Part shown: piece by piece, positions 18,065-43,449 of the stretch | Position numbering within the stretch: the first letter of the stretch is position 1 | How the letters are laid out: each line of letters starts with the position of its first letter | DNA from: Plicaturopsis crispa FD-325 SS-3 | Lineage: Eukaryota > Basidiomycota > Agaricomycetes > Amylocorticiales > Amylocorticiaceae | Direction: 5' to 3' | Length of the DNA stretch: 64,000 nt | Assembly (NCBI GenBank): GCA_000827205.1 | Contig: KN832554.1 | Span: 1,424,345-1,488,344, forward strand | Notes under the pieces: generated by a model | Told to the model about the DNA's origin: nothing | The model's input: the letters and a program-made list of their open reading frames with translations, nothing else | The model's database searches: none | Position numbers and translations under genes: made by a program

Positions 18065-19625
18065 TTACAGGTTTTTGATGATAGCGGAGGTGAACTCGGA
18101 GGTGGTTGCAGAGCCTACGGTAAAGCGGCATCAGGATACTGCTATAGTGTGAAAGGGACGATATAAACTTACCGCCCATGTCTGCCGTCCGGACCTTGGA
18201 GTCATTGATGACGTTGAAAGTAGCGCTGGCAATGCTGTTGGCGATGGGGTCAAGGCTACAATATGCCAACGGTCAGAATAGACGAAAGGGAGAGGCATGA
18301 GAGAGCGACGCACCCGAGATGCCTGAGCATCATGGTCGCGCTGAGGATCATGGCAGCAGGGTTGGCACGGTTGGTACCCATGATGTCCTTTGCGACGTGA
18401 CGGCATCCGGGCTCGAAGAGGGCGTATTCCTATGCCATACTCTGCGTCAAGAGATAATTCCGTGGGAGGAACAATTAACCCACCCGTCCAACATTGCAAC
18501 CAGGGACGATTCCGGGTCCACCAACGAGGGCGGCACCAATGTTCGAGACGATGGCACCGTACAAGTTGGGCATGACCATGACGTCGAACTGTCCGGGCTT
18601 GGCAACAAGCTGCATCGACGTGTTGTCGACGATCATGTCATTGAATTCGATGCCAGAGGATTTGTACTCCTCTGCGACCCGACGGAACGTGTTGAGGAAG
18701 AGACCGTCACCGAGCTTCATGATGTTTGCCTTGTGGACACATGTCACTTTCTTGAAAACAGAGATTCAAGTCAGTTTTTACTGCGCAGCTGAGCGAGCCA
18801 CAGCGCGTACCTTGCGGTTGTTCTTGAGCGCAAAGTCAAATGCGAACCGCGAGATACGCTCGGCCTTGGCGCGCGTCGACACCTTCAAACTTTCGACGAC
18901 ACCGGGGTAGCTCTGGTGCTCAAGGCCCGAGTACTCACCCTCCGTGTTTTCACGGATGATGGCGAAGTCGACGTTGGAATGACGCGTCGGGAAGCCGGGA
19001 AGAGATTTGCAAAGAACAACGGAGGCGTAGATATCTAGCTGCTGGCGCATCGCGACGTTCCACGAGATGTGGCCGGACTGCGATATGGGGGTGAACAGGA
19101 TACCTAAAGGTTGGCAGCGTAAATTAAACAATACAGCAGGAGCATCTGGACGTATACTTACCCTTCAGTCCAACACGGTTGCGCTTCAAACTCTCCATAG
19201 CCTGCTTGAACAGATCCTCGCCAGAGGAGGACATGCCAGACACGTCGTACTGCTCCCACTCAATGGGTGCGTTGACGTGCTCGAAGATTTCCTTGACCGA
19301 GTCTGTGATCTCGGCGCCGATACCGTCACCGGGAATGAGGGTCACCTGCAAAACTTAGGATCTACACCCGGTGTGTTCATGGTTTCGCCATACCGTGTAG
19401 ACACCACCATATTTGGTAGGCAGCTACAAGCAGATTGTGAGCCGCGTCTTCCAGCTGCAAAAGTACTGCACGTACCCTCTGCGTCACTTTTGGGAAGCCA
19501 GCCGACAAGGTTGTCGCGGTTCTCTACGCGCGAATGTGAGCGCATTCCACCCGGTAAAAACGTGCAAAACATACCGATTGAGAGAGGACAGGGCGAGCAG
19601 CAGCCGAGATAGCGTTGCGCAACAT
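18065..19625 (-). CDS. idh1: NAD-dependent isocitrate dehydrogenase subunit 1, mitochondrial
   Basis: Subunit of the TCA-cycle enzyme that oxidises isocitrate to 2-oxoglutarate with NAD in the matrix. A targeting peptide ([17 protein letters not shown], then [10 protein letters not shown]) is coded by two small exons. Next: [113 protein letters not shown], and a C-terminal [19 protein letters not shown]. These are the conserved blocks of the Idh1/Idh2 family. [20 protein letters not shown] identifies Idh1-type rather than isopropylmalate dehydrogenase. About ten exons, ~375 residues. The start at 19625 is the first Met with a presequence in frame. It is divergent with a membrane hydrolase, 320 bp apart. 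Confidence 0.95.
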
Positions 19626-19945
19626 CACAGACGTTGGACGGACGAGAAAGAGAAAGACAAGAGATGTCGACGAAGGAGAGAACCGGGTAGCTTTCAAAAA
19701 TCAGAGTCTCCGGATCCGAGTCCGCGCTGTACGTCGGAGTCCGGATCAAGCCATGCGATCCTGTTCGGTCCTGTATCGGACACCGGGACTCCACTTGTTC
19801 TTCAGGTTTTGGTTTCACCGTCAGCTGCCTGCTTATATTTTCTATAATTTCACGAGCATCTTGCTGCTCTTCCTTTCTTTTATACAGCGACGTACGCGAA
19901 ACATATACCCCCTCACCGAATTTCCGCAAAAAATTGGTCTCGCCA
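19626..19945. promoter_or_regulatory. Shared divergent promoter, IDH1 / alpha-beta hydrolase
   Basis: 320 bases between two outward-facing start codons. Contains AT-rich ATATTTTCTATAATTTC (about 19835-19852) and TTTTATAC on the plus strand. No named factor site is claimed. Confidence 0.4.
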
Positions 19946-21907
19946 ATGGCCCACGATCCATCCGAGACAGTAGACCCCCCACGGAAACGCGCTGGCTCTT
20001 TCTTCTTGGTCTTGTTATTCATCATCGCTCCGTTCTGGCTGGTCGTTCCTCTTGCGTGGACGTTCGTTATCTACGCGCTGAGGACCGGAAAGATCTGGTC
20101 TTTCTATTGGCCTGGCCGATTACTATTTGGTGCAGCGTTATGCGAGGTACGCTTACATCCGTGATTCGTGCAGAAGTACAGACTGATATATCGGCCTTGG
20201 GATTAGGTCTTCTTCAGTGTGTACCACTGGAATCTTGCGGAGCTGGTGTCGAGGAACTCCCCTCATAGTCCCGGGAGCCTCACCGAGCTGCAGAATGCAT
20301 ATTCTCGCGTCTTGAAAGCCGGGCTCGCTCAGCTACCGGAGGATGGATTTGACGAAGAAACGCTTGACGTAGACAGGCCAGGGAGCCCCGCAGAGGAAAT
20401 CGAACAGCTTCGTGCAGATGACCCGCGTGCTATCGACTTTCGGACGGTCTTACGGACTTGGTTCGGCGGTGCGCCATGGTCGCATCTGCGCCGCACGGAA
20501 GTACGCGCTTGGCTCTACTGGTCCATCTTCAACGCGCCCCTTCCGCTTAACGATGATTTACAGCACGCGCATCGCGTTGTTCTCAACGACGCGCTTGACT
20601 TGCTGCAAAAGCGTTCCGGCACCATCATTCCCGACGGTTCTAATCCCTCCGTGAAACCCATGCTGATGACACTCGACAAAGTCAAGGTCTCGTGGCGTCC
20701 TTTCGGATTCTACGTCTTCGTCGCGGTCCTCAACATGGTACTGAAAATATATTATACTCGATTTTGTGGCTTCCGGCTCGGTTGTTATAATGGACTTGAG
20801 TTCGTATCTTTTTCATATGCAGCAGCGGAATAGACGGCTAACGCATCGTCCAGATACATAATCCGCGTACCCAAATCTTGGAACCAAAGTAGCGGTGCCC
20901 GCCCTCTCGTCTTTGTCCATGGTCTTGGGCTGGGACTCGCCCAATATCATCATCTTCTCTCCAACCTTCGTCGCGAATTTACCGACCGTCCGATTCTCGT
21001 CCCTCTGCAGCCACATATCAGCCAAGACATATTCCATCCACAGTATCTAAAGCCCTTGAATAGATACGAAGCCGCCAATGCCCTCGCGGGTCTATTGGCT
21101 GAGCTCGGGTGGGCGGATCCGAAGAAGGTCGATGAGCTCGGGTTGACAGAAGATGAACAGAGCGAAGGGGAAGAATCTACGAAGGGTGCATCGCGGAAAG
21201 GCGTCACCATGATGAGCCACTCCAAGTAAGCTCATCTCATATCAGCGCTACTTGTTCGTTGATGTGATGCATGTTATAGCGGATCTTATTTCCATGCGTG
21301 GATGCTAAAGAGCCACGGGAAGATGGTCTCTCGTTCATGTTTTGTTGATCCTGTGACTTTCTGTTCCTGGGAAGGCCGTGAGTGAATCCCTGCAGTCCCC
21401 ATATATCCTCTATTCTAATATGCCCCATAGACGTCTGCTACAATTTCCTCTATCGCCCCTGCAAGACGGTATGCTCATATCAACCGTCAAGCCGTAAAAC
21501 AGATTCCTGACATTCTTGTGGCGATCTAGGGAATTGAATTAATCATGCGGTACTTTGTTGGCACCGAGCTCGGTGTCGCGAACCTCCTCTACCGTCATTT
21601 CGAGTGGTCCTCCAATGCCCTTTGGTACGAGGACATCCCGAACGCACGCGATCCCTCTAAAACCATGTTCGCCTTGGGAGGCCAAGATAGCATCGTCAAC
21701 GCAGAGGTCGGTCGCCCATACTTCTCTGTCTTAACCCAGATTCATATCTGACGGTCCTATGTCTGTCAGCGCGTGAAACGGTACCTGACCTCGCACGGCA
21801 TCCGCAAGGGTCTATGGTACGATCCGAATGGCAGACATGGCCAGGCTTTGATCCGCGGTGGAAAAGGCCACGCAGAAATTCTACGCTGGCTCCAGGCTGA
21901 CTGCTGA
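19946..21907 (+). CDS. Membrane-anchored alpha/beta hydrolase
   Basis: About 530 residues over eight or so exons. The N-terminal exon has two hydrophobic segments (SFFLVLLFIIAPFWLVVPLA and WTFVIYALRTG...GRLLFGAAL), so the protein is probably anchored in a membrane. The hydrolase core follows: PLVFVHGLGLGLAQYHHLL (oxyanion HGxG), GVTMMSHSNGSYFHAW (nucleophile elbow SHSNG, a variant of GxSxG), VDPVTF, ALGGQDSIVNAERVKRYLTS (acid D) and RGGKGHAEILRWL (catalytic H). A middle region (FRTVLRTWFGGAPWSHLRRT, EVRAWLYWSIFNAPLP) is shared with a group of fungal hydrolases I have seen without a known substrate. The start at 19946 gives MAHDPSETVDPPRKRAG ahead of the first helix. Divergent with IDH1. Confidence 0.82.
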
Positions 21908-22599
21908 TAAGCACATGTATATTCCTTACCAGAGGTACTATATATTCCTTACTAGAGCTTCTCCCACTTGGACCTATACTGAAGGGCGCGGCGTGTATCA
22001 TTACTGTCATCATATATCTAGATAATTCTCTGATACCCTAGTGCCCAATGTACCGTTAGTCACAGTGAGCACGCGCAATATGAATCGATGACAGACGTTG
22101 CCTGCTCCATCTGCTCTTTGGTTCCATCGCCCGCGCGCTACAAACGAGTGTCACAGATTCGCTGGCTGACATTGACTATCCACATCTCCGAAACTGCCTT
22201 GTCGTCACTACCCGTACTTGAAGCTTCGACTTCGCTGGCAAAAGTACGCAGCTTGAGTGCCAGGTTGTTCTCGGTCAAGCTAGTCAAGGGGGTCGTAGAC
22301 TCGGATGATCGAGAGCGGAATCGTATGAAAACCATGGCACATTGCTCGCATTTCCAATCAATTAATCACGTATGTCCCTACTGTTCTCGTGAGCAAGTGT
22401 AATCCAACAATTGAAAATGTCCCATATGTTTGTGCCCTTGTGAACTCGAGCATACGCTTATGCTACACAGTTGGCTGCGTCGAGAAGGACGGTGGAAAAC
22501 GGTGCATGTTTGTAGCCTCTGCAAGGTTCAGCTCATTAGCGAAGACCATTTCTGCAAACACGTGGTAGTGATGCGCACATCTTTGTGAGACGAAGGAGT
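21908..22599. other. Intergenic region downstream of the split methyltransferase
   Basis: Convergent spacer. A minus-strand frame at 22138-22335 and a plus-strand frame overlapping it are present, but neither has a motif, start context or splice support. The EgtB-like second half that follows the methyltransferase in Egt1 proteins is not seen here. Confidence 0.45.
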
Positions 22600-23319
22600 T
22601 TACTGACATCCCTGGGAACATGGAAGGGGGCGATCGAGGAGCCACAATGAATACTGTGAGGCGCTGTCAGTCCAGCGTTGGATAACCCGTAAGTTTGCGC
22701 GGGTGAACAAGGTGTGGACGTCGTCTTCAGAGAACTACAAAATTACACGGCAATCTATGAACATAGGCAAAAGATGCAATGCCTATTGACATACCTTGTA
22801 CGATACCGCAACCTTGACAATTTCATCAGCAACAAAGGTTATTTCAGTCTCGCTGGAGGGGGGAGTGATTGTCTGTGCGCATCTCGACCTGTAACAAGCC
22901 TCGTGGAATCCTGCAGATGCTTAGTCTTGATGTGAGTACATGTTGTAAGGAGAACGATGATAACACTTACACTCCTGGGGCATGTTATATCTCCCAACAT
23001 AATCCCACTCTTCCTCGTCGAAGAGATTATCATTGCCAAGCGCTCTACCTGCACCAGTCAAACCGTTCATGACGAATCTCCTGCTGTATCCCTTTTCGTC
23101 ATTGTAGGCTCTTTCGATCTTGCCACGGTCGTGATCGTGATCCAAGCCCATCAAAAGTGTGTCGCCAGAGTTAGCACGCAGCGGCAAGGAGCGAAGAAAA
23201 TCTGCGCCATCCTGGCGATCGAAGTTCCCCAGAGACGATCCGAGGAACATGATGTGCAAAGGGGACTGAGCGGCGTCTCGCGTGGACGATTTCATTGAAC
23301 GGGGTAAAGTATCGCTGCT

Positions 23320-23326
23320 CTCCTCC
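23320..23326 (+). repeat. Target site duplication, left copy (CTCCTCC)
   Basis: Seven bases directly before the left terminal repeat. The identical CTCCTCC follows the right terminal repeat at 27417-27423. The pair is a perfect 7-bp direct repeat of host sequence. Confidence 0.85.
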
Positions 23327-23536
23327 TGGGCTTGGGCAATTGCGGTTCAGAAAGTGTACTGCTTATGTAATCACTTTGCCAATGAACGCGACTTTCAAAG
23401 TGACGCACCTCGAATTTTCGACCCGAGTACCCTCTACGACTTCAGTTTTGATTCAAATCGTGCATTGTATGTGTAGTAGGTACATTAGATGCCAAAATAG
23501 ATGTCTGGAATGTCAATATTAGTTATTATAAGTGTG

Positions 23537-26500
23537 TTAAGTATCGTATTCAGTGTCCAATGCCGTATCACCCAGTTCCATAACAATTTCCGGCGAAAAC
23601 ATTGCATCCTCTCGAGCGACTCCTTCAGGATCGATATCCTCGAGATCACCATCGGCTACGTCGACGTCCATTTGCTGTGAGTGGCGCGCGATGGCTGCTA
23701 ACAAACCGGAAACTTTTGCAGCTTTGAGTCTTGCATCCTTCTTCTTAGGTACATCCGGGTTCCCGAGATCGCGATGCTTCTCCAGCTGCTCGTCAAGCTG
23801 AACGTTCGATAGAGACGCGACAGTCGACGGGTCTAGGTGGAGAGAGAGAGTGGAAAGGTGAGCCCTTTTCTCGGCCACCTTCTGCGCTTTCACGGCGTCC
23901 TTGGCGCGCTTGTCCGCAACGATTTTCTCGTCGTATTCGTGCTGCGCCTTCCTTTGCTGTGCGGCGAGACCGCTAGCATCCTCCTCTCGGGCTTTCCGTC
24001 GAATATGCTGGTGGTCTTCGTCCTCCGTAAAATGGGCGTCCATGAATGCATCGGTGTCGTTGTGATTAAAAGTCGCCTGCGCACCGTACGCATGGATTGT
24101 TGTGTTCGGTTTCATCCGTGCATGCAACCTGAACGATCCTAATGCACCTTCGTTCGCGTCGTTAGTCGCAGGCATCCAAGCGCGCTGGCGCTCGTCGGCC
24201 GTCGCCTCGTCAATCAAGCCTCCCGGAGCAAATTCGGATGTAAACCGCTCCCACGTCGCAAGCGCTCCTGTGAAGAATGCGACAGTGATAGGCCGGACAT
24301 GCGGAAGACGAGGGGAAAGCTCGTGGATTGCGACCATGACGTCGGAGCGAGCCCAGTCGTGGCCATCCATGGTCGCTGTCTCGAAGTCGGCGTCAGGTGA
24401 GAGCAGTAGATCGGGGTTGTCGATGATCTTCTGACAATGATTCTTCACTAGGACGTGAAGGGGACCCAAATCGAGCATGTTGGCACCGCGTCCTTCCAGG
24501 CCGCGGACGCACCGCATATACGGGTATGTGATCGCGAGTGCGTAGAGAGCAAGAGCGACAAGCTCCGTGAGGGTTGCGAGGTCGTGAAGCGCATCGTAGA
24601 TGTTCTGCTCCATGTGATTGAGCTTCCGGTTTGCTTTTTTGTCGCGCTCCGTCTCGAGTAATCTGATGATTCCAAGAATGTAGACCAACGCTTCCATCGC
24701 AGCGTCGCAATGGGATTGATAGCGAGTGTTGTTCGTGTCGGGGAATTTGGAAAGGCAACCGTATAGCTCACGTACGTGGATTCGATACAGATCCTGATAC
24801 CCCTTCTTATCGTCCTTGTGATTCATCAGTGCGCCGAGGAGCTGTGTCAATTTGACGCCACCCCGCGAGGAAATGTCGAATGCGCGCTTTTCGGCAGCCG
24901 TGGTGTAGCCCGATGAAGACGCCCCGTCGAGCGTCGCAGCGTTGTCTCGATTTGCCAGTAGCATGGGCCCAACAATACTATTCGCGATCCACCATTCCTG
25001 CATCGCGCGGTTACCGCCTTTGACCGAGTTCAGCTCCTTGTGCATGCAGCACCCGCACCAAATGAAGAGGTCGAGTTCGCGTTTCCGCTTCTCGGGTAGG
25101 TCCGCATAAGCTTCCTTTCCCAAGCGCACGGACAAATCCTTCATCGCGTTGACCTCGAGTACAGTCTGGGCCTCCGGGGACAGCGCCTCCCATGCCTCGT
25201 CGCCGCCAGCTTCCTCAATCTTGCGACGGTTTGTATCGAGTAGCAGTACAAGGAGCTCCTCTGTAGGTCGCGCTATTAATTCCCTCCGCCCGAGCTCGGC
25301 CTGCATGCATTCTGCCTTCCACAAGCACGCGAGCCGGAAGAGTTTCTTTTGATCTTCGGCGTGGTCTGTATTCATCCCCGAGAATTTCGCGACGATCTCC
25401 TCGGCCTCCAAAGTTATAGCCTCACGTCTCGCAAGGGGGCTCTCGTTGTACGCGGTACGGATACTCTCGAGGTCTTCTTTCAAGCCGGCCAGCTGACTCT
25501 CGCTCGTGTGGTTCACAGACGTGCGGACCGACATTAGCCGTACCCGCTGCGAAGGGCTCTCCGAGTGGGGGGTACCTGGCGCGTAGGATTTCGCCTTGAG
25601 TGCGATATGCCGTGACTCATACTGGAGGCTTTTGTGTGAAGTTCCATCCGTGCTGACGGTAAAGCCTTGGTTTCCATGTCAATATCACTTGCGACGGACA
25701 AGAGGTGAGTAACTTACTATCTGCGTTCTTCACCTCATGGCCAAGCTGAATCTTCGACGCTATGCCTCCCTCACGCAGCGCCCGTCCAACGGTACGCCTG
25801 CTTATCCGACCTTTCACCGAAATCCCCAGCATCGAGGCGATCGAGGCGATCGTCGGCCCGACGTGTTCCTGCGAGCATCCGGCTTTGACGAGCTTTCTCG
25901 CAAGCGAGCGGACACATGGTGTATAGCCCCCTTTATGGGTAAGACGAAAGGTCTGCGCTACAGCATGCGACTGTCGTTTTGAGCGCGCCACGGCTTTTGC
26001 GATACGCTCAGGTATGTGCTCGCATTTGATCTTGTATTTCTTCATCGACTGCTTGTTGACTATGGCCTGTCGCTTGTAGAAAGAGGCCGTCGATACCGCA
26101 TCTTCCATGAGCTTGTCGATGAGCGCCTGCTGCGCCCGAGAATCGAGTCGCGCGGACTGGAGGTGCTGCTCGGTCTCGTACAGCTTCGTCGACGCTGCGG
26201 GCAACTGGACAAGCTCGAGATCTTGTATGCGTCCCGCAAAATCTCTGCGGGCGCGCTTTGCGCGCTCCACCTTCCGCCGCTCGTTCCGATATATCTGGTG
26301 TACTGCCCGCAGACGCTGCTGCATGGAAGCGCGGGTGTTCTCGCTCGAGGCGAGTTTGTTCTGCACATCCGCAAGGGCAGAACGCGTCGCTGCATGCTCA
26401 ATCCTCTCGGCGGCGCCAGCCTCTCGTGCTGCTGCTAGCTCGCGTCGCCCGGCCTCAATGCCGTCATTCAATGCCGCGATTTCTTGAGCTGCGGCCCCTG

Positions 26501-26684
26501 CTCTCGTTGTACGTGTGGAGATCAAAGGTGCAGCAGATCCGCGGGGAGCGTCGTTTTCATTACCCGCAGGGTTTACACGTTGGCGAGAGAAGTCGGTGGG
26601 GGCTAGGTTCTGGAGCAATGCTTCTCTATTCTTGCGCGCGGTGTATTTCCTCGTAGGTCGTCGAACTGATCTATGTTTCGGCAT
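23537..26684 (-). CDS. Putative DDE-type transposase of an unrecognised family
   Basis: Two exons (26684-25718, 25665-23537) joined by a 52-base intron give 1031 residues. The intron is needed: it joins KNAD to STDGTSHKSLQYESRH and restores one frame. From the N-terminus: basic MPKHRSVRRPTRKYTARKN; a long coiled coil (~55-220); a helix-turn-helix-like block (~255-310: SLARKLVKAGCSQEHVGPTI, ISRRTVGRALREGGIAS); STDGTSHK (D329); GMNTDHAEDQKK (D423); FIWCGCCMHKELN (CxxH, ~528-531); MLDLGPLHVLVKNH; and TNDANEGALGSF (E828). D-D-CxxH-E is what hAT-like and KDZ transposases show, but the sequence is not KDZ and I cannot match it to hAT. Similar proteins are common in Agaricomycete genomes under hypothetical labels, as I recall. 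The C-terminus is charged. Catalytic residues are a proposal. Confidence 0.75.
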
Positions 26685-27116
26685 TGCTCTAAATGTGCTG
26701 GACTACTACCTCTGCATCCTCCCTTTAAATCGGTGCCCTTCATAGTGAACTTCGTTAGCGTCAAGCACATAGGATGCTCGTGTTGGATATAGCGTACCCA
26801 GCAATCAATTCGGACCAAGGACTTTAAAAAACCAACTCTCCCATGCCCGAAAAAATATAAATAAGAGACTGAGAGAGAGCAAAAATTAGGACATTTAAGT
26901 TATTAGAGAATGGGGCAGTCCATGGTGCGAGAGGGACAAAATCGAGGAAGAGGGAGAGTGTCGGAGTCAAATTCACGACGCGACTGATCAACAAAACGCG
27001 CTTGTGGCTGAACTTGGACCGCGTTTGTGTGCCCCTCGCCGTAACATGCTTTTCGGCTTCCTCACTCATTGTATGGCCTCAGCATGCACAGACAAATGCA
27101 TGGTACAAGGTATATC

Positions 27117-27244
27117 TGTGCAATGATTGGAATGGACATGGATAAAATGGCTGCCATCTCTCAAAGCATACTGAGATTGAAGGTAAACACGGTCATTTAC
27201 ACGGAAAGGGGCATATCAAAAATTTCTACTCCAATCATTGCACA
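27117..27244. repeat. 15-bp inverted repeat inside the transposon, near its right end
   Basis: TGTGCAATGATTGGA (27117-27131) and its exact reverse complement (27230-27244) flank 98 bases. It could be a hairpin in the transposase 5' leader, a binding site for the transposase, or the ends of a tiny nested element. No target duplication was found around it. Confidence 0.55.
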
Positions 27245-27416
27245 CTCTAGGTATTTTTGAGACACTTTCTCTCTCAAAGTCTTCTCGGATTCGAGTTGAC
27301 GAGGCGGAAAGCGTGTTACCGTCAGGTGTGCCATTCAGATCGACGCATATGCGCGCGCGCGTTCATCGCCACAATCGTGGGACTTTTTTTTTGGAGCAGA
27401 CGATTGCCCAAGCCCA

Positions 27417-27423
27417 CTCCTCC
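27417..27423 (+). repeat. Target site duplication, right copy (CTCCTCC)
   Basis: Second copy of the 7-bp host sequence, directly after the right terminal inverted repeat; see the left copy at 23320-23326. Confidence 0.85.
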
Positions 27424-28084
27424 CCGTCGAGCATGTGCGAGTCGAAACAAGTGCTTGCGTCACGTCCACGCAGCCCGCCTTTTTTCAAAAATTTGATCCC
27501 GTCGTCGTATGTTCCCCACATTCCCATGGTTTCGACTTTGCCCTCCAGGAGCGCGCCGATGTCGGAGTTTGCCAAGTCCGTGAGGCACCGTTGTAGCTCG
27601 TTCTCATCTAGATCAAGGGCGTAGTATGTGATGGGAGCGGGCGTAGTGGGAGTTCTGACAGTGCGAGATAATGCGCTGAGGATATGCGTTGTCTTACGCA
27701 GAGTGCTGAAGAGTTTGCGGAATCCGTCAGCGGTATATTCTGGAATTGCATAGGGCTTACAGCTCACCCTGCCCCGAGTTCTAAGAGAATCTCGTCTGTG
27801 ACGCTGTTGTCGCTACTATGCGAGTGCATCGCGGAGACGATCTCGTCTGCATGGTTCTTCAAGATTTCTTCCTCGGCAGCGAAGAGGTAGTACTCTGGGG
27901 CTTGTGTGGTAATATCATCGTAGAGCCTCAAGCCACGCTCGTCATATAATACCACCGCAGGAAGCGTCTTGTACCCAGCTGGTTGAGTGAGGCCCTCTAA
28001 GATCTGCAGCGTGATGGTCTTGTTGAATACAACGTCGTGGAGGGGCTCGTCAACGCGGATGTCAACAATGTGAATGGGTGCCAT

Positions 28085-29651
28085 CTTTACGGTAGTGCAA
28101 GGGGAGAAGTCTCAGGGATGAATGGGTTGCGTTGTATGAGTTGGACGGTAGAAAGCAAGAGAATTGGGCGTGGGTGTCCTATATAGCAAAACAGTGGTGA
28201 ATACGACGAGACGCCCAGACGAGCATATATTACTTACCTATCGTCGCATATACCACCGGCAATAGCGGGATGGATTGTGCATCGTTGTTTCAACATGACG
28301 CCCGTTCGAAGTATCCTCTGGGTCGGACTGCATCCTACAAGTCATAGAAAGGATTCAGCTACGTGTGTTGGGTACTGCTCCAGGGTCCCTATAAATTTTC
28401 AAGATTGCTGACGCTGCACGCATCATGATGCAAACGGGCGATATAACGTCAAGGCCCGTATCTTTTGTATAGACTCGTAGAGCGACAGTAAGCCTGGGAG
28501 AATTCCTGATCAACAGGAATCCCATCATGCTACTAAGTACATGACGGTTCAGGAATCATACGAGAGGAATAGACTACTAAGCCGCGCTCACCGCGATAAC
28601 TTTGTGTTCAGTCTTCAAGATGTCAGACACCAGGACAGCGCTAGCGCTCTGTACTAGCTGCGCCGTATGACTCTGCCCGGGGTTGGCCCGTGAACGCAGA
28701 GCGTTACAGTCTTTCAAGACAGGTCGTCACAGTTACGTACATACCCGGTGTCACCATGAGCAATTCGTGAGTAACTGTATTCCAACGATTCATAATCGAT
28801 AATCTGCGCCTCCCGTAACATGAAACTTATCCTTCATGCTGCAGCTGCCAGCTCAACTTCGAAATGGAGCACCCCACAGGTGAGGGTGCGATATCGTTCA
28901 ATCTCAAGCCAATCTCACGCCAATTGACGCCAGTTTCCCAATTCAATCGGGGTCAAAAGTAGTAGTACGGTCCGTACAGCAATCTACCTACCAAACAAGT
29001 CGTGATTGAGCGCTCCGACATTAGTGGAACACATCCCCGACGAGATCTCCGAAGCCTATGTACAGTCGAAAGCCCGGCGCTAAACATGAGCGCTTAAGAC
29101 GTTTTGCTCCTCATATTTCCACTTTGCTTGTATTGCGAGTACATTGCGAATACAGGTGAGCATTACATGCTTGTAGCTTCTGTGTTTGTGCTGACTCGAC
29201 GGTACTATTCAGGTGAAATACTGCACGTATCAAGGAGCTTGGAATCCGGGACCTCGCACCCCGCAGGTAAGGGCGCTTACACAGCGGATGCGTTGACAAT
29301 TTAATCCCTCGACTGCCTTTTCGGAGTACTGTTGCCCGGAGAGATTGTTCTCCCTTTGTTCAGCAAATGTAGCAGGCCGGTGTTCAGAAGTTCCATTTGA
29401 GGCTCTGTTTTCGGCAGGTAGGCGTCTTGTCATCATAGTAGGTCCATGTATTCACTAGTTGGCTAACTTCATTAACACAAAGGTTATTATCTCAGGATCT
29501 ACCTCTCTCATGGGCGAGCTACCATTCGTTACTCAAGTGGGGCTGTCGCACATCAATCAAGCTTTCCTCGCGTTGTTGCCATAAGTACACGCACAGTGAA
29601 CCTGAGGCGCCCGCCTGGCCCTGTTAGTCGCCTCTTGTCCTCTCCCTCACC
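28085..29651. other. 1.6 kb intergenic region, low coding signal
   Basis: Divergent spacer between the methyltransferase and the MFS transporter. It must hold both promoters. Short frames occur but none has a motif. Two stretches are alike: GCACCCCACAGGTGAGGGTGC at about 28870 and CGCACCCCGCAGGTAAGGGCGC at about 29257, each given here only as a degenerate 21-base match. A 7-bp-arm palindrome (ATTCCTG/CAGGAAT, 28502-28520) is also present. Decayed gene sequence is possible but cannot be supported. Confidence 0.4.
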
Positions 29652-32137
29652 ATGACCGGAAATACTTTGCCAGTTGTGCCAGTCCGAAGGTCTAGAATGT
29701 CAAGCATTTCGCTGATTTTTGCGTGCGCTGTCCTTGTCATCTTTCCGTTTCAATTTGACCTTGATAGTCTTGCTCGTCTGCTCCTGCGGCCACTGTCTCC
29801 TATAGATGTGGAACTGCGCTATTCTCCGATGGTGCGTATACGCGCGGGATTTTGCGGGGCTATACTCAGGCCCAATCTTTTGCTCTCAGGATACGCAAAC
29901 GGAGTCATGGGAAACGGTATGTCAACAACATCTTCTCGCGTGCTTACAATGGTTTACTAATTCGGGCATTGCAGTCAACACTAGTAAGGGATCAGCCCTC
30001 GGCATTGACTGCGCAAGAACGAAACTCAATGTCCGCATGGGTGGCAAGTTTTGACGAGAGTATACGGGAAGGCCGCTCTCGCAAAGAGCAATTACAGCAT
30101 CGTCTTGACCAGCGTCGGATTTGCCGGGACTATTGTCGGCATGCTTGTATTTGGTGTTCTATCCGACAAGATTGGGCGGAAATTCGGAATGGTGAGTTCG
30201 TGACTCGGTCGCCTACAGTATACGGAGAAAACTTATATGTTCCACCGAGATGTTGGCAGCCGGGATTGTAGCCTTTTTTTCTGCGCTTTCCTCTGTGTCA
30301 ATCGGAGCTCACCACAGTGTCAGCGGCATGCTGTCCATGCTCAGTACCTGCCGGCGAGTACCGGGACATAATGACACCGGCCATTTCCTTGACAGTACTG
30401 TATGTTGCACAGATTCTTCTTAGGTATCGGCGTAGGCGCTGAGTGGCCCTGCGGGTCTGTCGCTGCTTCGGAACAATCTGAAGACCCGAGCATTGACAGG
30501 AACACCCAGCATCGATGGTTTGTACTTGCTACGAGTACGCGCAGCTCCTTCCAAGATATGACGTTGTAGCTGAGACGTACCCTTTGCAGATATCATGAAT
30601 GATTTGGGATTCGCGCTATCATCGTTTGTACCGCTTGTGCTCTTTTGGGTGTTAGTTCTTTCCCTCTGCTCATTGACAGTATGTTGCGCTTAACGGTTGG
30701 CACAGTTGCGGTGAGAACCACCTACGCGCCGTTTGGCGTCTTTCTCTTGGCCTGGGCACAGTCCCCGCCGTTGGCGTATTTATATGGCGCTGGAATATGG
30801 AGGAACCTGTACGATACAAGGAATCCAGCATGAAGAGGACACAGATTCCGTACAAGCTCGTGGTCAGGCGGTATTGGAGGGGTGTGCTTGCGTTGAGCGC
30901 TGTTTGGTTTATCTACGATTTCATCACGTAGGTCGTCCCGAGTTTATATTGATGCTACAGATCATTGGACTGACAGAACACATAGCTACCCAGTATGTGT
31001 TCGGGTATATCTTGCTCTCGGGATCGCTCACCGTGTCATTTCAGTTTCTGTTGTACTCTTCGACCGTTGTAAACAAGTATGTGTCACGCGCTTACTTCCC
31101 CTGCTGTTTTGATTGATTCGCCTCTTGCCTGAAGCATCACGGGCGGAAATCAGTCTCTGACTGTGGTTCTCGGCTGGACTGTCATCATAAAGTATGGCCT
31201 TGCCTTTTGGGCTTGCGTTCTTGGCTCGCTGACGAGGCTCTGTGGCTCAGCTTGTTCTATGTGCCCGGTGCAATCGGCGGTGCTTTCATTGTTGATTATC
31301 TTGGACCCAAAGGGACTATGGTGTGTAAAAGCTCGCATACCGCAGTGTCACTGAAGTTGAAGTGGGGACTTCTTCTAGATTTTTGGCCTCGTCTCCCAGG
31401 CGCTGATCGGCTTCATCATGAGCGGCTTGTACACTCAGCTCAGACAACATGTATCTGCATTCGCTGTGAGCTCACAACCTTTCATCTTTGGACGGGAGCA
31501 TTGACGAAAGGTCTATACAGGTCATGTATGGCATTTTTCTAGCGCTTGGGGAGGTCGGACCTGGCAACTGTCTCAGTTTGCTCGCTGTCAAAAGTGGCCC
31601 CACTGCGGTCCGTGGTCAATATCATGGACTGGCCGCGTCGATAGGTAGAACTGCGAGCCCTTTGCCCGCACGTGGTCTGTCATTAATGTGTCCACGGCAC
31701 CAGGCAAAATTGGCGCCTTTGCAGGAGACTGGGGTGAGCGGCAAAATTTACAAACACTATCTTTTGCTGACATTAGCTGTATTCCCAGTGTTCCCCGCGT
31801 TGATCAAGAGGGTCGGCGGAGCCGAGAGCATCAACGGGAATATCATCCCATTCCTGTTTGGTAGTGCCCTCGCGCTTGTGAGCGCCATCATAATGTTCTG
31901 CTTCATCAAGCCTCTGGACCACGATGGTATGGTTCTAGAGGATATGAAGGTCAGTCTCGGGGTTGTATGTAGTTCAGCATAAGTACTCATTGTTACATGG
32001 TGCCGGCGCAGTTCCGTGCATATCTCGAAGCCAACGGCTACGACACCTCACAAATGGGTCTTGCCAGTGAAACGGCGACGATAGTGTCAGATGGGTCAGC
32101 CGAAAAAGTTGATGACCGGACTGGTGCTGCTGTTTGA
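29652..32137 (+). CDS. MFS transporter, phosphate/glycerophosphoinositol (Git1-like) type
   Basis: A plasma-membrane proton symporter of the major facilitator family; substrate by analogy phosphate or glycerophosphodiesters. About a dozen exons. In order: [60 protein letters not shown] with IGRKFGM (the loop 2-3 MFS signature), [102 protein letters not shown] and [19 protein letters not shown], then an acidic tail with GYDTSQMGL. One intron joining CR to FFLGIG needs a GC donor (GCGAGT, 30354-30412). All exon joins I tried keep frame, so the gene looks functional. The start at 29652 gives a polar N-terminus before the first helix. Confidence 0.82.
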
Positions 32138-32551
32138 GCTGTTTGAGCGCTTGCGACAGCTCTCCGGATTTGCTCGATAATCTGCCCTTGGAGCGGGTGA
32201 CCGAGATCTTAAACAGCCTGTCTTTAAAGTGCCTCCGGACGGTCTTAATTGACTTCGTAAGCAAAGATGCGGAGGAGGGAGGGAGGGAGGGAGGGAGGAA
32301 GAAGTCGCAAAAAGGATGGCTGTCTTCGTCGAGAAAGGGATATTGAAGGTCAAAGAACGTGAAAATTTTAGCTATAACATATTTTCAATGTACCCAGCAA
32401 GTCGTTATGCGTATACATCAGCTACAAGAAGAAGCATTCAGTTTTGGGTATTAGTAGAATCAATCGCTCACAGGACATACCTACTATACGCGCAATCAAG
32501 CACACTTATTTTCCTCGACCGTATTTCCCTTCTCCTACACAAGAAGCTCCT
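32138..32551. other. Convergent spacer with a GGGA repeat
   Basis: 3' spacer between the MFS transporter and the MYND gene. It contains a purine run of GGGA units at 32271-32300 (listed separately); otherwise nothing is recognised. Confidence 0.45.
32271..32300 (+). repeat. (GGGA)n purine tract, possible G-quadruplex
   Basis: Five GGGA units in tandem after two GGA units. Four runs of three G separated by single A could fold as a G-quadruplex in DNA or in the MFS 3' UTR. It lies about 135 bases after the transporter stop. Confidence 0.55.
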
Positions 32552-34468
32552 TTAGGATTGTGGTCTTGGTGTGTGGAATTCAGATCTAAGCAGGGTGAGG
32601 TGACCAAGGCTATCTTCGCCACGCTCAACGGTAACGGCGCGGACGATAGCCAAAGGGCCGATAAGCCCCCGGGCTTTGTTGACCTCTTCCGCCTGTCGTA
32701 CAAAACTGTCCCAAAACTTGCGTGCTTCAGCGCTCATAGAACAGATGGCTGGCCTCTTTGTTGGAGACTGCGTTACCACCTTCACGGGGAAGACAGTGTA
32801 ATCGAAAGTGACGAAGGGCAGCTGAATTTCTTGCGCCGCCGCCTCTTTGAATATACTCTCGACCCGGTCTTTGAAATCACGGGTTGCGATGGCCGTGACG
32901 AACTTAGCTGAGTCGCTCTCGACGGCATCGTCTATGGCACGACCCGATGAGACATCCCGTTCATCGATGCCATAAGTATCACCCACTCACCGCTCGCACG
33001 TTTTGAGCATTCGAGCTTGTGACTGATTTTCCAGTCAGCGTTCTGACAAGCCGTACTGCAATATACAACGCTCCGACAGCGAGAGCAACGCTTGAAAGTC
33101 GTACGGGTTTCGTCGACATTTCCGCACTATTAAACAGAGCTTAATCAAAAGATCATAGAAAGAGAAGAAGCGACGCACAAGATCGTTGCCGCATTTGTAG
33201 GTTCTCAGGGCAGTATTTGGGTCATCCTTGAGAGACCAGCGATCCGCAACCAAGGCCTTGAATGCAGTCCATGCGCTCCACACTGGGAGAGCCTCGGCAG
33301 TGCGAGTCTCGACGTGATCGGAAATGCTGTCGAGGGATTTCTTGAATGCCTCTATGGCGGGCAAAGAAACCGTATATCGAGGAAGAATCTCGCGTAAGAG
33401 AGTAAGATACGGCTTTCTTTCCTTCTCGCTAAGATGAGATAACCACTGATCGCACAGCACAAGAGCAGGGAAGAGACCCGCTTCGACTGCATGGACGACG
33501 TATGGATGTCCGTCGGATTGTGTCTCCTGTACCATGCGTCCGAGATACGACATGCATTCATAGATCAGGAATCTGGCGTTGAGATCGCTAGTGTTATGCC
33601 GTTTCGCGGTAAATTCGAGCACTTCGATGACGAGCGGGATGGAATTTTGCGCAAGGGTCTCGTTTATGAGTAGATAGGAGTTGCCGCATAAATTGTCCAG
33701 GAGCAGAAGATCGGTGCCTATCCATTGAAAGTTGGGAAGCCAATGCAGACGTTCCTGGCGTATGTTGTTCAACGCGGCTGATGCAATGTCCGCTACAGTT
33801 CGTCCCGAAGTACTCTCGATGGCATGGACGAGGCGATCTGTGTCCGCCCTACTGACGTCGTCGTGGTTGGTGTACAGGAACATGAATCCATTAACGACCG
33901 ATCCTAGGTACGGAACCTCTGCGGAGCTTAGACTCAGCGCGCGATGGTCTAAGCGGGGGTCGTTGGCCTCCATGACCCATAGATCGAGTAGAAAGTCCAT
34001 TGCACCAGGAGTCGTGCGGACAATTGAGGACAGCTCCGGAGTATTGAGGAAAAAATCGAGGGCGCAGACCTCTGTCTTGAAAACGGAAGGTCGTATGAGG
34101 CCGATCAACTTATCATCGTCGGCCTTTAGAGATGTCGCGAAGAAAAACTGCAGCCAGGCCCATGCGCGAGGCCACATTGCTGTAACTTTGGAGACTATCC
34201 TAGGACCGTAGCCTTTAGTGAGGTGGGGTTTCACACTTCGAATGATGGACAGGGTGAACAGAGCTAGAGTGTGCCGGATCTCTGTGTCGGTATGCTGCAA
34301 GGCCGGTATTCCCGAGGGCTCAAGATGGACGTCGAGAGCGGATAGTATATATATGAGCTCTTCCGGAGTAGCTGGCTTTATGCAAGTCGCAAGTTTCACG
34401 AGACTGTCAGGCGAGCCATCTTTGGCGTCGCGGACCAGTCTTTGTGTGCACTGCTCAGGCGGCTGCAT
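32552..34468 (-). CDS. MYND zinc-finger protein with an N-terminal helical region
   Basis: Three exons; the first (34468-33179) codes 430 residues. This is the basidiomycete layout of a long helical repeat-like domain ending in a MYND finger, a protein-protein interaction module. Helical region: LVRDAKDGSPDSLVKLATCI, PAWAWLQFFFATSL-like repeats, LLREILPRYTVSLPAIEAFK. The finger is built across the first splice: YKCGNDLC, then FKRCSRCRSVVYCSTACQN and DWKISHKLEC (CxxxxC-CxxC-CxxxC-HxxxC). The C-terminal exon has VESIFKEAAAQEIQLPFVTF and ends RSEFHTPRPQS. I took 34468 (MQPPEQCTQRLVRDA) as start because family members begin just before the LVRDAKDG block; the frame stays open to 34735 but that part is unlike the family. 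No enzymatic SET domain is present. Partners are unknown. Confidence 0.8.
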
Positions 34469-34946
34469 TTTTCGAATGTGAAAAGAGGGCGACCAGGCGA
34501 AAAGCTGGAGCTCACCTCGTGCATCAGCTGGCGACTTTTCAGTTGATAAACCATAGATGCCATTGTGACGGCCATGTTGGCGAGGTGCACAAACCGATAG
34601 ACGGTCGTTGAAATTGAGAGTGCAAAAGACGCGTCTAGTAAATTGAAGTCGCGACGGCGCGGCATAGGCGCGGCCAGGGCGCGGCACGCCATCCTTCGCT
34701 TGTACTTTGTACTCGTACTCTTCGGCTTGCACCACTTCATTCCATTTGCTGCTGCGATTTGTGGTGAAATCTTCGACAAATTAACCCTTGTGGGCCAGCG
34801 ACATCGTTCTGAGCTAACAGACTCTGGCGTCTTTCCGCCATAGATACTATCCGGACAGTAGACGCGCTCAGAGGCGGCGCCACAGTGCTACTCCAGAGAG
34901 TTCGGGCACTGGAGTAGGAGTAAACATCAAAATAAAAATTAGGACG
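34469..34946. promoter_or_regulatory. Divergent promoter region, MYND gene / F-box gene
   Basis: 478 bases between two outward-facing starts. The MYND frame stays open through part of it, so the true MYND start might lie further right. No clear TATA box or factor site is visible. Confidence 0.35.
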
Positions 34947-36300
34947 ATGCCCCAGTGAGTTAGACTTGAGAGCAACTATCGTCATTCTCAACTAAATCTT
35001 CTCTTTGTAGATACGGAATTGCACGACTTCCCTGCGAGCTGGATGCTCATATCGTCGCCCATTTCAGAGACTCCACAATCGATCTACAAATAATGTCATT
35101 GGTATCCAAGTCATGGGCTCTGGCCGCACAGTCCTGGCTCTTCTACGACATCAATCTTTATGCCGACCACGATGAGCACGATCGCTACGAGCGCGCCGAC
35201 ACCTTCGCTCGTTTGATCGATGGTAATCCACGTCTCGCATATTATGCCAAGACCTTGAATATCGATGCGGGGTCATCGTACCCGGATGAGCGCCCTCACG
35301 TCGATGCCATTCTACATGCCATAGGACCGAAGCTGGTCAACGTTGACCACATTCGACTCAAATTTTTCCCTTTCGCGCCATACCATTCTCTTCGCTCGTC
35401 CATAATCACCTACTTTCCCAATTTGCGCACATTGCGTGTAGAGATGTCCCTTTTCGAGTCGGCCGACGACATGGGCTCTTTTTTAGCATCGTTCCCGCGC
35501 ATGGAGTGCCTGCAGTGGGTACACAATTGGCATCGCGATTGGACTGCCCCCGCCCCAGCCGCAAGGCCTAAAGGTGATTGCGTCGAGCACGGAGCGCCCA
35601 ATACTTCGTTTGGGCCTTGCTTGAAGAGTCTGGAATTTGGTGCTATGAAAGAAATTGGCAGTACGCTTTCGCAGATGATCAAGCGTCGTATGTTGTATGC
35701 CGTCAAGAAATTAACGATAGCCTCGATATCCGACAAGGACATCGCACAGATAGACAACCTGCTCCAGTATTTTGGAGCCAACCTTGAGCACCTAGCTCTC
35801 AATAGCCCATCCACTTGGAACAATGCTAGCTGTGAGTCAAGTCAGCTCAACGTTGTCGCTATCCCTCATCTGTATGTCTCCCAGATCTTGGCACCGGGGT
35901 CATCTCTTTACTACCCAACGCATCTCTGAAATCCATCACTTTTGACAACCTCATCTGCCTCCGCAGCAACGATAAAGCCTGGATCTCCTCGATACTGTTA
36001 TCCGTCTCGTCGCCGCATTTGGAGACGGTCTCCTTCACCGTGACCTACTCTGACGCCACTTTTATTCGGAGTCTACCCCTCGAAGAGATAGCGCAGATCC
36101 TGACTGAGCCGCTGTTCACCCGTCTGAAGACGGTCTTCTTCGACTTAAAATGTCAGTTCGTGGAAGAGGGTCCCAGGGGCAGGCATGATATCCAGCGCCG
36201 GATGCCCGTGTTGGCAGATGTGCTACAGTTCAGCGAGAGTGCATACGATATCGAAGACGTCGTGCACACTAGACAACGAGGAACCGCGATCCTGTTCTAG
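34947..36300 (+). CDS. F-box protein with leucine-rich-like repeats
   Basis: Likely an SCF ubiquitin-ligase substrate adaptor, one of the large basidiomycete F-box set. The first coding exon is only 8 bases (34947-34954, ATG CCC CA) and is joined across a 56-base intron to give MPQYGIARLPCELDAHIVAH. The F-box follows: LPCELDAHIVAHFRDSTIDL, QIMSLVSKSWALAAQSWLFY. Then LRR-like helices and strands: YFPNLRTLRVEMSLFESADD, FPRMECLQWVHNW, LKSLEFGAMKEIGS, NLEHLALNSPSTWNNAS, and after a second splice LLPNASLKSITFDNLICLRS and SSPHLETVSFTVTYSDATFI. The tail ends GTAILF at 36300. About 405 residues. Without the mini-exon there is no Met before the F-box, so the small exon decides the start. Its target is unknown. 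Confidence 0.82.
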
Positions 36301-40799: not shown

Positions 40800-43449
40800 T
40801 TAGGCTGCCCGTAGACGGATGCGCACAGCGTTTGCGTGGGCTTGAAGTCCTTCGCAGTCGGCGAGCGTAGCGACGACGGGTCCGAGCTTTTGCAGTCCGC
40901 TGGCCGTGATCTCTTGCGACGTGATGTGCTTCTGGAAAGAAAGCGTGTTGACCCCGCTGAACTGACGCGCGTAGCCATTTGTCGGGAGCGTGTGGTTGGT
41001 GCCCGACGCGTAGTCGCCACAACTGCAGACGTGTTAGAATGTAATCAGGATAATCAATAAATTGAATGCACGAACCTTTCTGGGGAGTATGGGCCGACGA
41101 AGATGCTGCCAGCGTTGTCAATGGAGGCTACCCGCTGCGGCGCGTCTTTCAGGTGGAGGATAAGATGTTCCGGTGCGTAGTCGTTGGAGAACGCGATAGC
41201 CTCCTCGGTGGACGATGCCTTTACGATGATACTTCGTGCGACGGACTGCCGCACAATGTCTACGCGGGAGAGCGCGCGGGCCTGTTCGTCTACTTCCCGC
41301 TCGATGGCAGCAATCTCATCAGAGGACAGGTTCACGCCGACGAGGACGACTTGGGAGTCGATGCCGTGCTCTGCTTGCGAGAGAAGATCGGCAGCGACGA
41401 ACGCGGGGTTCGCTGTGTAGTCTGCAATTACCTGGCGAAGACGATACAGTCAGTAAATATAGCGGGAATGAATATGGGGGAGTCACTAACAAGGACTTCA
41501 GAAGGCCCCGCAGGCATGTCAATCGACACCAGCGCATCGGTGTCATTCTGAACGAGCATCTTCGCAGCAGTCACCCATTGATTCCCAGGCCCGAAGATTT
41601 TGTCAACCTTCGGCACCGTCTGCGTGCCGTACGCCATCGCAGCGACCGCCTGGCCTCCCCCAGCCTTCAATACCGCGCTCGCCCCGACCAAGTGCGCGAC
41701 ATACATCACTTCCGGCGATATGCTGCCGTCGGGCCGCGGGGGCGTTGCCAGCACGACCTCCTTGCACCCGGCGACCTGCGCGGGTATGCCGAGCATGAGC
41801 GCGGTGGAGGGGAGGATCGCGGTGCCGCCGGGGACGTACAGCCCCACACGCGCGATGGGCCGCGCGAAGCGCGAGCACACGACGCCGGGCATCGTCTCGA
41901 CGACGAGCGGCGCGCGCTCGAGCTGCGCCTCGTGGAACGTCCTGATGTTCTGGTACGCGGTGTCAATCGCGGCTCGCACAGGCGCGTCGAGCACCATGGA
42001 CTCGGGCGCGTATGGCGGGAAGAGGACGGTGGAGGTGAGCTGCGCCTTGTCGAATTTTGCGGTGAGCTCGAGGAGGGCGGCGTCCCCGCGGACGCGCACG
42101 TCGTCGACGATGGGCTTCACTTTCGAGATCATCTCGTCGGATTTGAGCACGGGGCGGCGGAGGAGCTGCGTGCGCTCCGCTGGCGAGATGGTGGATAGAT
42201 CGGACGTGCGCATCCGGATGGGGGCGCTGGGGTCGAACGATGGGCCGGGCACTGGCGGTGGTTCTACCTTGGGAGGGGGCGAAGGTTTCGAGGACCACTG
42301 GGGCTTTGCATTGCCAGCTCTCCGCGTGATCTTTTTCGCCTTCTGGTCTAGCGAGTGCTCTATATCCGCAATGCCAACGCCTGCAGCCACACATCGTGTG
42401 AGCGCAAAGTACAGTAAATCGGCAGCTTCGAATGCGACTTCTTCTTTGGTCTCGGCACGGCACAGCTCATCCGCCTCCTCCATGATTTTTGACCGCAGGA
42501 GCTCTTGATCGTCGAAGAGCCGTTTTGTGTAAGATCCCGGGACGGCCGAGTGCAATCGTGACTTCAAAGTGTTTTCCAGGGCAGACAGTCCGTTGACCTC
42601 TCCGAAGCAAGAAGTCCGATCCAGATGGCAGAACCCTGCACCGTGCTGGACAACGCTGAATTCGAGACAGTCCGAGTCACAGTCCAAACGGATACGGACG
42701 ACGTCCTGTGTAGCGCCGGATGTCTCGCCTTTGCGCCACAATCCGTGCTTCCGTGACTGATAGACGCCCTTTCCGGTGAGGATACTCTCGGTGACGGACG
42801 CAGTAGACGAGTATACGAGGCCGAGGGAGCGACCGCCCTGAGGGTACGAGGATACGACCGTTGGGAACAGACCATCCGGGCGATCCGAGACGACAGGAGC
42901 GAGGAATGCATCCGCGATGTTCATCTGAGCGGGCGAGGACGCGGAGGTCGTGAGCTGCGCCGTCGGTATGACGAGCCGCGCGTTTATACCCAAGAGCTCC
43001 CTGATCGTTGAAGGAGACGGCGGAGAATTTGTCGCGGGTAGGACGTATATGTCTGCACCGGTGAAGAATCTCGAGATAGACGTGATAAGATCGAGGTCGG
43101 CAACGGCTGTCTTTAGCAGGACGCCGGATACACCACTGCGGACTGTGTCGGAGACCGCACTGACATTACCTGCGTCGAGGAGTAGGACGAGGCGCTCCGC
43201 GGGGATGACGCTGATGAGCTCCTTCGCGCGTGCCAAAGGCACGATGACCTTCTCCGCGCCGGCGTCGAGCCATGAGATGATTTCCTCGACGTCTGTGGGA
43301 CCCTCATGGTCTGCGAGAATGTAATAGTCGCATATGATAGGCAGTGTATCTAGGGATTGTCCTGCAGGCACAATGACTGGGCCTATGCGAGCGAGGACCT
43401 CGTACAGGTCCGCGTCCTCAGGGTCGAGGAGGGGCAAGAATACCGACAT
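40800..43449 (-). CDS. his4: Trifunctional histidine biosynthesis protein (PRA-CH, PRA-PH, histidinol dehydrogenase)
   Basis: One polypeptide for three steps of histidine synthesis, as in yeast HIS4; about 850 residues, three exons. N-terminal ~200 residues form the extension found in fungal His4 ([20 protein letters not shown]). PRA cyclohydrolase: [20 protein letters not shown] and [10 protein letters not shown] (~220-290). PRA pyrophosphatase: [35 protein letters not shown] (~330-375). Histidinol dehydrogenase from ~405: [66 protein letters not shown] (His/Glu catalytic area), [18 protein letters not shown] (metal His). The start at 43449 is the first Met of an open exon; [12 protein letters not shown] fits the family. 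A TGACTC element lies 131 bp upstream (listed). Spliced ends GT-AG. Confidence 0.96.

What the first reader, a model, noticed from the sequence alone, without database searches (positions are those of the whole stretch)
23327..27416. Young, complete DNA transposon defined to the base by TIR, TSD and host reading frame
Three independent facts agree on the ends. First, a 14-bp perfect terminal inverted repeat, TGGGCTTGGGCAAT, at 23327-23340 and 27403-27416. Second, a perfect 7-bp direct repeat CTCCTCC just outside both ends (23320-23326, 27417-27423). Third, removal of the element plus one CTCCTCC leaves the host codons GAG GAG | AGC AGC in frame, between GGL...DGEE and SSDTLPR...HIMFLG. A 7-bp duplication is unusual: hAT and KDZ elements usually give 8, Mutator 9, CACTA 2-3. 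With a fully open 1031-codon gene this is a good type copy for a family that may not be described.
Basis: seen in the sequence. Interest (0 to 1): 0.88.

Follow-up and report, generated by a model that had tools for sequence, protein, structure and literature searches.

The report
Intact fungal jumping gene, unassigned family
A complete-looking 4.1-kb cut-and-paste jumping gene sits inside a probable fungal methyltransferase gene; its enzyme matched no transposase family in the libraries searched, but no second copy could be examined, so its family and its exact target rule remain open.

Summary
A perfect 14-bp inverted repeat bounds 23327-27416, with CTCCTCC directly outside both ends. A minus-strand gene (exons 26684-25718 and 25665-23537, predicted 52-nt intron) encodes 1031 aa with strong codon periodicity. 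The joined flanks stay open through an EgtD/EasF-type methyltransferase, so this is an insertion into a gene, most likely by a DDE cut-and-paste transposon.

Two corrections. (1) The three facts do not fix a 7-bp duplication: CTCCTCC has period 3, so lengths 1, 4 and 7 fit both junctions and all leave the host in frame. Seven is favoured because it needs a shorter target tract. (2) Seven bp is not exceptional: hAT7, Kyakuja, Dada (6-7) and Galileo are published with it.

No transposase family matched in Pfam, NCBIfam, PHROGs or (exon 2 only) PDB sequences. By eye the protein carries D329, D423, C528xxH531 and E828, the order described for hAT, P, MuDR, Kolobok and Dada. No relative was found in the four collections searched, none fungal; the host genome is not held. 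Family status is untested.

The parts
23320..23326 (.). left copy of the target-site duplication CTCCTCC (7 bp most likely; 4 bp CTCC or 1 bp also fit)
23327..23340 (+). left terminal inverted repeat, 14 bp, TGGGCTTGGGCAAT
23382..23390 (+). subterminal 9-bp ATGAACGCG, 55 bp from the left end; its inverted partner lies 50 bp from the right end; weak (28 of 1000 simulated end pairs do as well)
23537..25665 (-). transposase exon 2 (residues 324-1031 and the end of codon 323); holds proposed D329, D423, C528xxH531 and E828
   Evidence: motif assignment by eye
25666..25717 (-). predicted 52-nt intron, GTAAGT...CAAG; chosen by eye because it keeps the frame and the residues around D329; no transcript evidence
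25718..26684 (-). transposase exon 1 (residues 1-322 and the start of codon 323): coiled-coil-like region about 50-234 and a weak helix-turn-helix-like region about 273-312
27117..27244 (.). 128-bp internal inverted-repeat structure (23-nt arms, 87% complementary) between the gene start and the right end; folds as a DNA hairpin, z -2.15
27358..27366 (-). subterminal inverted partner of 23382-23390
27403..27416 (-). right terminal inverted repeat, 14 bp, perfect
27417..27423 (.). right copy of the target-site duplication CTCCTCC
22921..28084 (-). interrupted host gene: EgtD/EasF-type S-adenosylmethionine-dependent methyltransferase (Methyltransf_33); extent approximate, not a full gene model; the element lies inside it in the same orientation

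Best explanation
An apparently autonomous cut-and-paste DNA transposon of 4090 bp. Its 1031-aa transposase would bind the 14-bp ends (and perhaps inner sites) through its N-terminal half, cut the element out with an RNase H-like DDE core (proposed D329, D423, E828, with a C528xxH531 motif), and join it to a target cut with a stagger, most likely 7 bp, giving CTCCTCC on both sides after repair. Here it landed in the coding frame of an EgtD/EasF-type methyltransferase gene. Shown: ends, flanking duplication, long coding frame, interrupted host frame. Inferred: the intron, DDE chemistry, DNA binding, length of the stagger, recent age, autonomy.
For: Perfect ends and flanking duplication, unique in the window; no match of this strength (12 bp or more with duplication of 6 or more) in 20 random sequences. 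Gene open over 1031 codons, period-3 power 21 against at most 1.54 in 50 mononucleotide shuffles. Flanks joined in a script read through; the joined piece hits Methyltransf_33 at 8.4e-32 and, with one more host exon, TIGR03439 at 209.8 bits, just above its cut-off of 205.55. A D...D...CxxH...E order with spacings 94 (D-D), 105 (D-CxxH) and 405 (D-E) agrees with the statement that a D/CxxH motif follows the second D in hAT, Kolobok, P, MuDR and Dada (PMC3706591 section 5).
Against: No profile or solved-structure match names the protein a transposase. Structure prediction from single sequence failed (mean pLDDT 38.1 and 43.5), so the RNase H fold is not shown. No second copy was seen: none in the rest of the window, none in the four collections searched, which are not fungal. 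The catalytic residues were picked by eye from one sequence; a second [C/D]xxH match exists at 680, and D563 is another possible second D.
Confidence: 0.87

Rival explanations
1. Same transposon, but the true target-site duplication is 4 bp (CTCC), inserted into a pre-existing CTCCTCCTCC tract, so that 7 is an accident of the trinucleotide repeat.
For: Duplication lengths 1, 4 and 7 fit both junctions and all leave the host in frame. The target is a period-3 tract. The hAT/Kolobok/P/MuDR/Dada group makes duplications of 4 to 10 bp (PMC3706591 passage), so 4 is not excluded by group.
Against: It needs the 10-base target CTCCTCCTCC, which occurs once in the window on both strands (39066); CTCCTCC occurs 25 times apart from the two copies at this insertion, two of the 25 being inside that longer tract. 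That favours 7 by roughly 25 to 1, resting on a count of one.
Confidence: 0.08
2. A divergent member of an established superfamily (hAT in the wide sense, as with hAT7, or Kyakuja/KDZ, P or Kolobok) whose similarity is too weak for the profiles used.
For: 7-bp duplications are published for hAT7, Kyakuja and Galileo/P; D...D...CxxH...E order.
Against: No Pfam transposase match even for five pieces scanned at E up to 10. The two Kyakuja families described have 5'-CA..TG-3' ends and no inverted repeats, unlike here.
Confidence: 0.5
3. The open gene is not the transposase of these ends: a cargo gene or an unrelated gene carried by an element moved by another enzyme.
For: No profile match to any transposase.
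Against: The gene fills 77% of the element; apart from its two exons the longest frame lying wholly inside the element is 140 aa; it shows a plausible acidic triad with CxxH.
Confidence: 0.06

Closest known systems
hAT superfamily, hAT7 lineage of rust fungi (PMC12730594, section read)
   Same: 7-bp duplication, fungal; D/CxxH motif after the second D is stated for hAT; short inverted repeats are usual for hAT (recalled)
   Different: no hAT profile match here; hAT7 is placed in hAT by transposase similarity, which is absent or undetectable here
Kyakuja (KDZ) of Agaricomycetes (PMC12730594)
   Same: 7-bp duplication in mushroom-forming fungi
   Different: the two Kyakuja families described end in CA..TG without inverted repeats; here TG..CA with a perfect 14-bp repeat; no KDZ profile match (that Pfam holds a KDZ model is recalled)
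Dada (PMC3706591)
   Same: 6-7-bp duplication, DDE, D/CxxH, intron-bearing gene; families listed from Laccaria bicolor
   Different: Dada with definable ends sits in small RNA genes; no terminal inverted repeats were found for the U6 and U1 families; CCCC and CCHC zinc fingers. None of these holds here
Galileo / P superfamily (PMC2775673, passages)
   Same: 7-bp duplication, likely cut and paste
   Different: Drosophila; no P-type transposase profile match here

Membership tests
DDE cut-and-paste TIR transposon (class II) | terminal inverted repeats flanked by a short direct duplication of host sequence | tested here: met
DDE cut-and-paste TIR transposon (class II) | transposase with RNase H-like fold and DDE/D triad | tested here: inconclusive
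   candidate residues by eye; fold prediction failed; no profile match
DDE cut-and-paste TIR transposon (class II) | several copies with the same ends | not testable with these tools
   genome not held; none in the rest of the window
hAT | transposase similarity to hAT (such as the C-terminal dimerisation region) | tested here: inconclusive
   0 Pfam families at E up to 5 for the whole protein; five pieces at E up to 10 gave only weak HTH models. Not met at profile sensitivity; a divergent member could be missed. That Pfam holds hAT models is recalled
hAT | duplication of 8 bp, or 5-7 bp in named lineages | tested here: inconclusive
   7 likely, 4 or 1 not excluded; hAT5, hAT6, hAT7 described in PMC12730594
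KDZ (Kyakuja) | 5'-CA..TG-3' ends without inverted repeats | tested here: not met
   ends are TG..CA with a 14-bp repeat; feature from PMC12730594
Dada | insertion in small RNA genes; no terminal inverted repeats | tested here: not met
   insertion in a methyltransferase coding frame, 14-bp repeat; features from PMC3706591
Dada | N-terminal CCCC and C-terminal CCHC zinc fingers | tested here: not met
   only cysteines 221, 257, 270 before the proposed core and none after 733; the one CxxC is at 526
CMCT (EnSpm, Transib, Plavaka, ESTA) | C(2)C and H(3-4)H motifs between second D and E | tested here: not met
   one CxxC at 526 but no H(3-4)H between 423 and 828; definition from PMC12730594
CMCT (EnSpm, Transib, Plavaka, ESTA) | 5'-CA..TG-3' ends in most cases and 2-5-bp duplication | tested here: inconclusive
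   ends are TG..CA (PlavakaA is reported with TGT..ACA); a 4-bp duplication is not excluded
MuDR/MULE | MULE transposase profile (pfam10551) and long, about 9-bp, duplication (length recalled) | tested here: inconclusive
   no Pfam match; the longest duplication compatible is 7
P superfamily | P-type transposase similarity | tested here: inconclusive
   no Pfam match; that Pfam covers P transposases is recalled

The most novel reading that the evidence does not exclude
The element is the type copy of an unnamed superfamily-level lineage of fungal DDE transposons with TGGGC..GCCCA ends, a strict 7-bp stagger, an N-terminal coiled coil and a D-D-CxxH-E core not captured by the profile libraries searched.
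Probability: 0.25. Interest if true: 0.6.

Novelty: new member of a known kind. Interest (0 to 1): 0.36.

Why it matters
If relatives confirm the ends and the stagger, this copy is a precise reference for a transposon lineage that the domain libraries searched here miss, so that such elements may now stand in fungal annotation only as hypothetical proteins (inference). It also marks a methyltransferase gene interrupted by one insertion in this assembly, and warns that frame-based arguments about duplication length fail when the target is a trinucleotide repeat.

Tried and rejected
Other copies: the own genome is not held; no copy in the rest of the window by protein or DNA (best outside matches E 2.1 and 0.77). 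Relatives, all with exon 2: six exact 8-residue patterns in viral contigs (1 stretch, 0 confirmed) and genome contigs (9 stretches, 0 confirmed); two degenerate patterns in viral contigs (0 and 0); tblastn in plasmids and phages (no match at E up to 1). These collections hold viruses, bacteria, archaea, plasmids and phages, so absence says nothing about fungi. I used 3 of 8 viral scans.

Profiles: Pfam on the whole protein and on five pieces; PHROGs and NCBIfam on both exons; PDB sequences on exon 2 only. The SMC match in NCBIfam (4.4e-06, 24.7 bits, cut-off 567) was taken for a coiled-coil effect and rejected as homology; likewise five weaker NCBIfam rows, three PHROGs at E 0.074-2.1 (one a tail tape measure protein) on exon 1, and a ribosomal protein at E 0.7 on exon 2. 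HTH_17 (0.044, below cut-off) was kept only as a hint.

Structure: two single-sequence predictions, exon 2 (mean pLDDT 38.1) and a 123-aa piece of exon 1 (43.5); too poor for a fold search, which I did not run.

Splicing: the donor GTAAGT with the acceptor CCGTCAG (ending at 25653) shifts the frame; the acceptor CAAG 13 bases upstream keeps it. Another repeat pair at 18915-35792 (11-bp repeat, 7-bp duplication) was rejected as chance: 20 random sequences gave 10 matches with 10-bp repeats and duplications of 6 bp or more. Subterminal repeats: the best pair is equalled by 28 of 1000 simulated pairs, weak.

Papers: 8 searches ran. I saw listings only, some capped (20 of 106, 10 of 28, 20 of 35); no title or abstract start there described an element with these ends or in this host gene. 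Seen: PMC12730594 (abstract and outline, introduction, sections 3.1 and 3.2), PMC3706591 (12 passages and section 5), PMC2775673, PMC4455052, PMC8290104 and PMC9674265 (passages). That this protein resembles many unnamed mushroom 'hypothetical proteins' is my recollection only.

Mended: the target ratio from 27 to 25 (own two copies removed), the 4-bp control added, the second CxxH match added, GC comparison reworded, and the hAT, P and MuDR rows set to inconclusive.

Full report
What was checked. The repeat TGGGCTTGGGCAAT lies at 23327-23340 and inverted at 27403-27416, and CTCCTCC lies at 23320-23326 and 27417-27423. Among perfect inverted repeats of 12 bp or more, 100-20000 bp apart, directly flanked by a direct repeat of 4-12 bp, this is the only pair in the window. 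In 20 first-order Markov sequences of the same length, no match with 12-bp or 14-bp repeats had a duplication of 6 bp or more; with duplications of 4 bp or more there were 7 matches at 12 bp and 1 at 14 bp. The structure is very unlikely to be chance, though a 14-bp repeat with only a 4-bp duplication would turn up about once in 20 such windows.

The gene. On the minus strand an exon from 26684 to 25718 and an exon from 25665 to 23537, parted by a predicted 52-nt GT-AG intron, give 1031 residues. The frame shows one stop (the terminal one) against 22 to 36 in the other five frames, and period-3 power 21 against at most 1.54 in 50 mononucleotide shuffles. The element's GC content (0.538) is close to that of the window (0.530). 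GC at codon positions 1, 2, 3 is 0.63, 0.50, 0.62 in exon 1 and 0.62, 0.41, 0.65 in exon 2; a HIS4-like frame in the window gives 0.63, 0.47, 0.72, so third-position GC is somewhat lower in the element's gene.

The target. Both flanks, joined in a script, read through without a stop. The joined piece matches Pfam Methyltransf_33 (8.4e-32), EgtD structures for the part after the insertion (5.5e-10) and, with the preceding exon, the NCBIfam EasF-family model (209.8 bits, just above the cut-off of 205.55; the EgtD equivalog model gives 131.6 bits, below its cut-off of 290.9). No sulfatase-type domain was recognised by eye downstream in unjoined pieces (not searched by profile). The host is thus an EgtD/EasF-type methyltransferase, product unknown. 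The element lies in the same orientation. In the numbering the insertion follows residue 201, between the two best stretches shown there (19-183 for the EasF model, 217-315 for the EgtD model); the second stretch of each model is not shown, so a loop position is plausible, not proven.

The duplication length. Left flank ...GCTGCTCTCCTCC and right flank CTCCTCCCCGTCG... match for lengths 1, 4 and 7. The net insert is then 4091, 4094 or 4097 bases, all 2 modulo 3, so each choice leaves the host in frame, with four, three or two glutamate codons at the empty site. A 4-bp reading needs the target CTCCTCCTCC, which occurs once on both strands of the window, against 25 occurrences of CTCCTCC other than the two at this insertion, two of them within that longer tract. 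Seven is preferred, by roughly 25 to 1 on this small count, before any prior from superfamilies.

The enzyme. A whole-protein and a piecewise Pfam scan, NCBIfam and PHROGs on both exons, and PDB sequences on exon 2 gave no transposase. Exon 1 scores as coiled coil (SMC model, far below its cut-off) and weakly as helix-turn-helix at about 273-312. By eye, D329 (in STDGT), D423 (in NTDHAED), C528xxH531 and E828 (in NDANEG) are the likely core; D423 lies 94 residues after D329, C528 105 after D423, E828 405 after D423. PMC3706591 section 5 states that a D/CxxH motif follows the second D in Dada, hAT, Kolobok, P, MuDR and IS256; a passage of the same paper gives hAT, Kolobok, P and MuDR duplications of 4 to 10 bp, which covers 7 and also 4. 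Against uniqueness, a second [C/D]xxH match lies at 680, and D563 in ANRDNAA remains an alternative second D. An H(3-4)H motif, part of the CMCT signature of PMC12730594, is absent. Fold prediction from one sequence failed.

Comparison. A 7-bp duplication is published for hAT7 in Puccinia and for Kyakuja in Agaricomycetes (PMC12730594), 6-7 bp for Dada (PMC3706591), and 7 bp for Galileo (PMC2775673); a usage example in the Repbase paper also searches hAT entries for '7-bp TSD' (PMC4455052). The Kyakuja families described lack inverted repeats and end CA..TG; Dada sits in small RNA genes, has zinc fingers, and its U6 and U1 families lack terminal inverted repeats. None of these features is met here. 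The element is therefore a DDE-type TIR transposon by anatomy, with superfamily unassigned.

What could not be done. 'Young' is plausible from intact repeats, gene and host frame, but not measured.

Verdict. A real, complete, probably recent insertion of an autonomous-looking transposon; a good type copy, of moderate interest. Whether it founds a new superfamily is open.

Noticed in passing
window 27117-27244: 128-bp inverted-repeat structure (23-nt arms, 87% complementary) inside the element between the gene start and the right end; folds as a DNA hairpin (z -2.15, 5 of 200 shuffles as good). No clear duplication at its ends by eye; possibly a nested small element or a binding or regulatory hairpin.
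   Followed up: partly
window 22921-28084: The interrupted host gene is an EgtD/EasF-type methyltransferase with at least one further intron (by eye) before the insertion; it reads open on both sides of the insertion.
   Followed up: partly
window 18915-35792: An 11-bp inverted repeat GGTGCTCAAGG with 7-bp flanking TAGCTCT, 16.9 kb apart and enclosing the element; at chance level.
   Followed up: partly
window 41428-43464: Long minus-strand open frame that looks like a fungal HIS4-type protein (phosphoribosyl-AMP cyclohydrolase and histidinol dehydrogenase); identification by eye.
   Followed up: no
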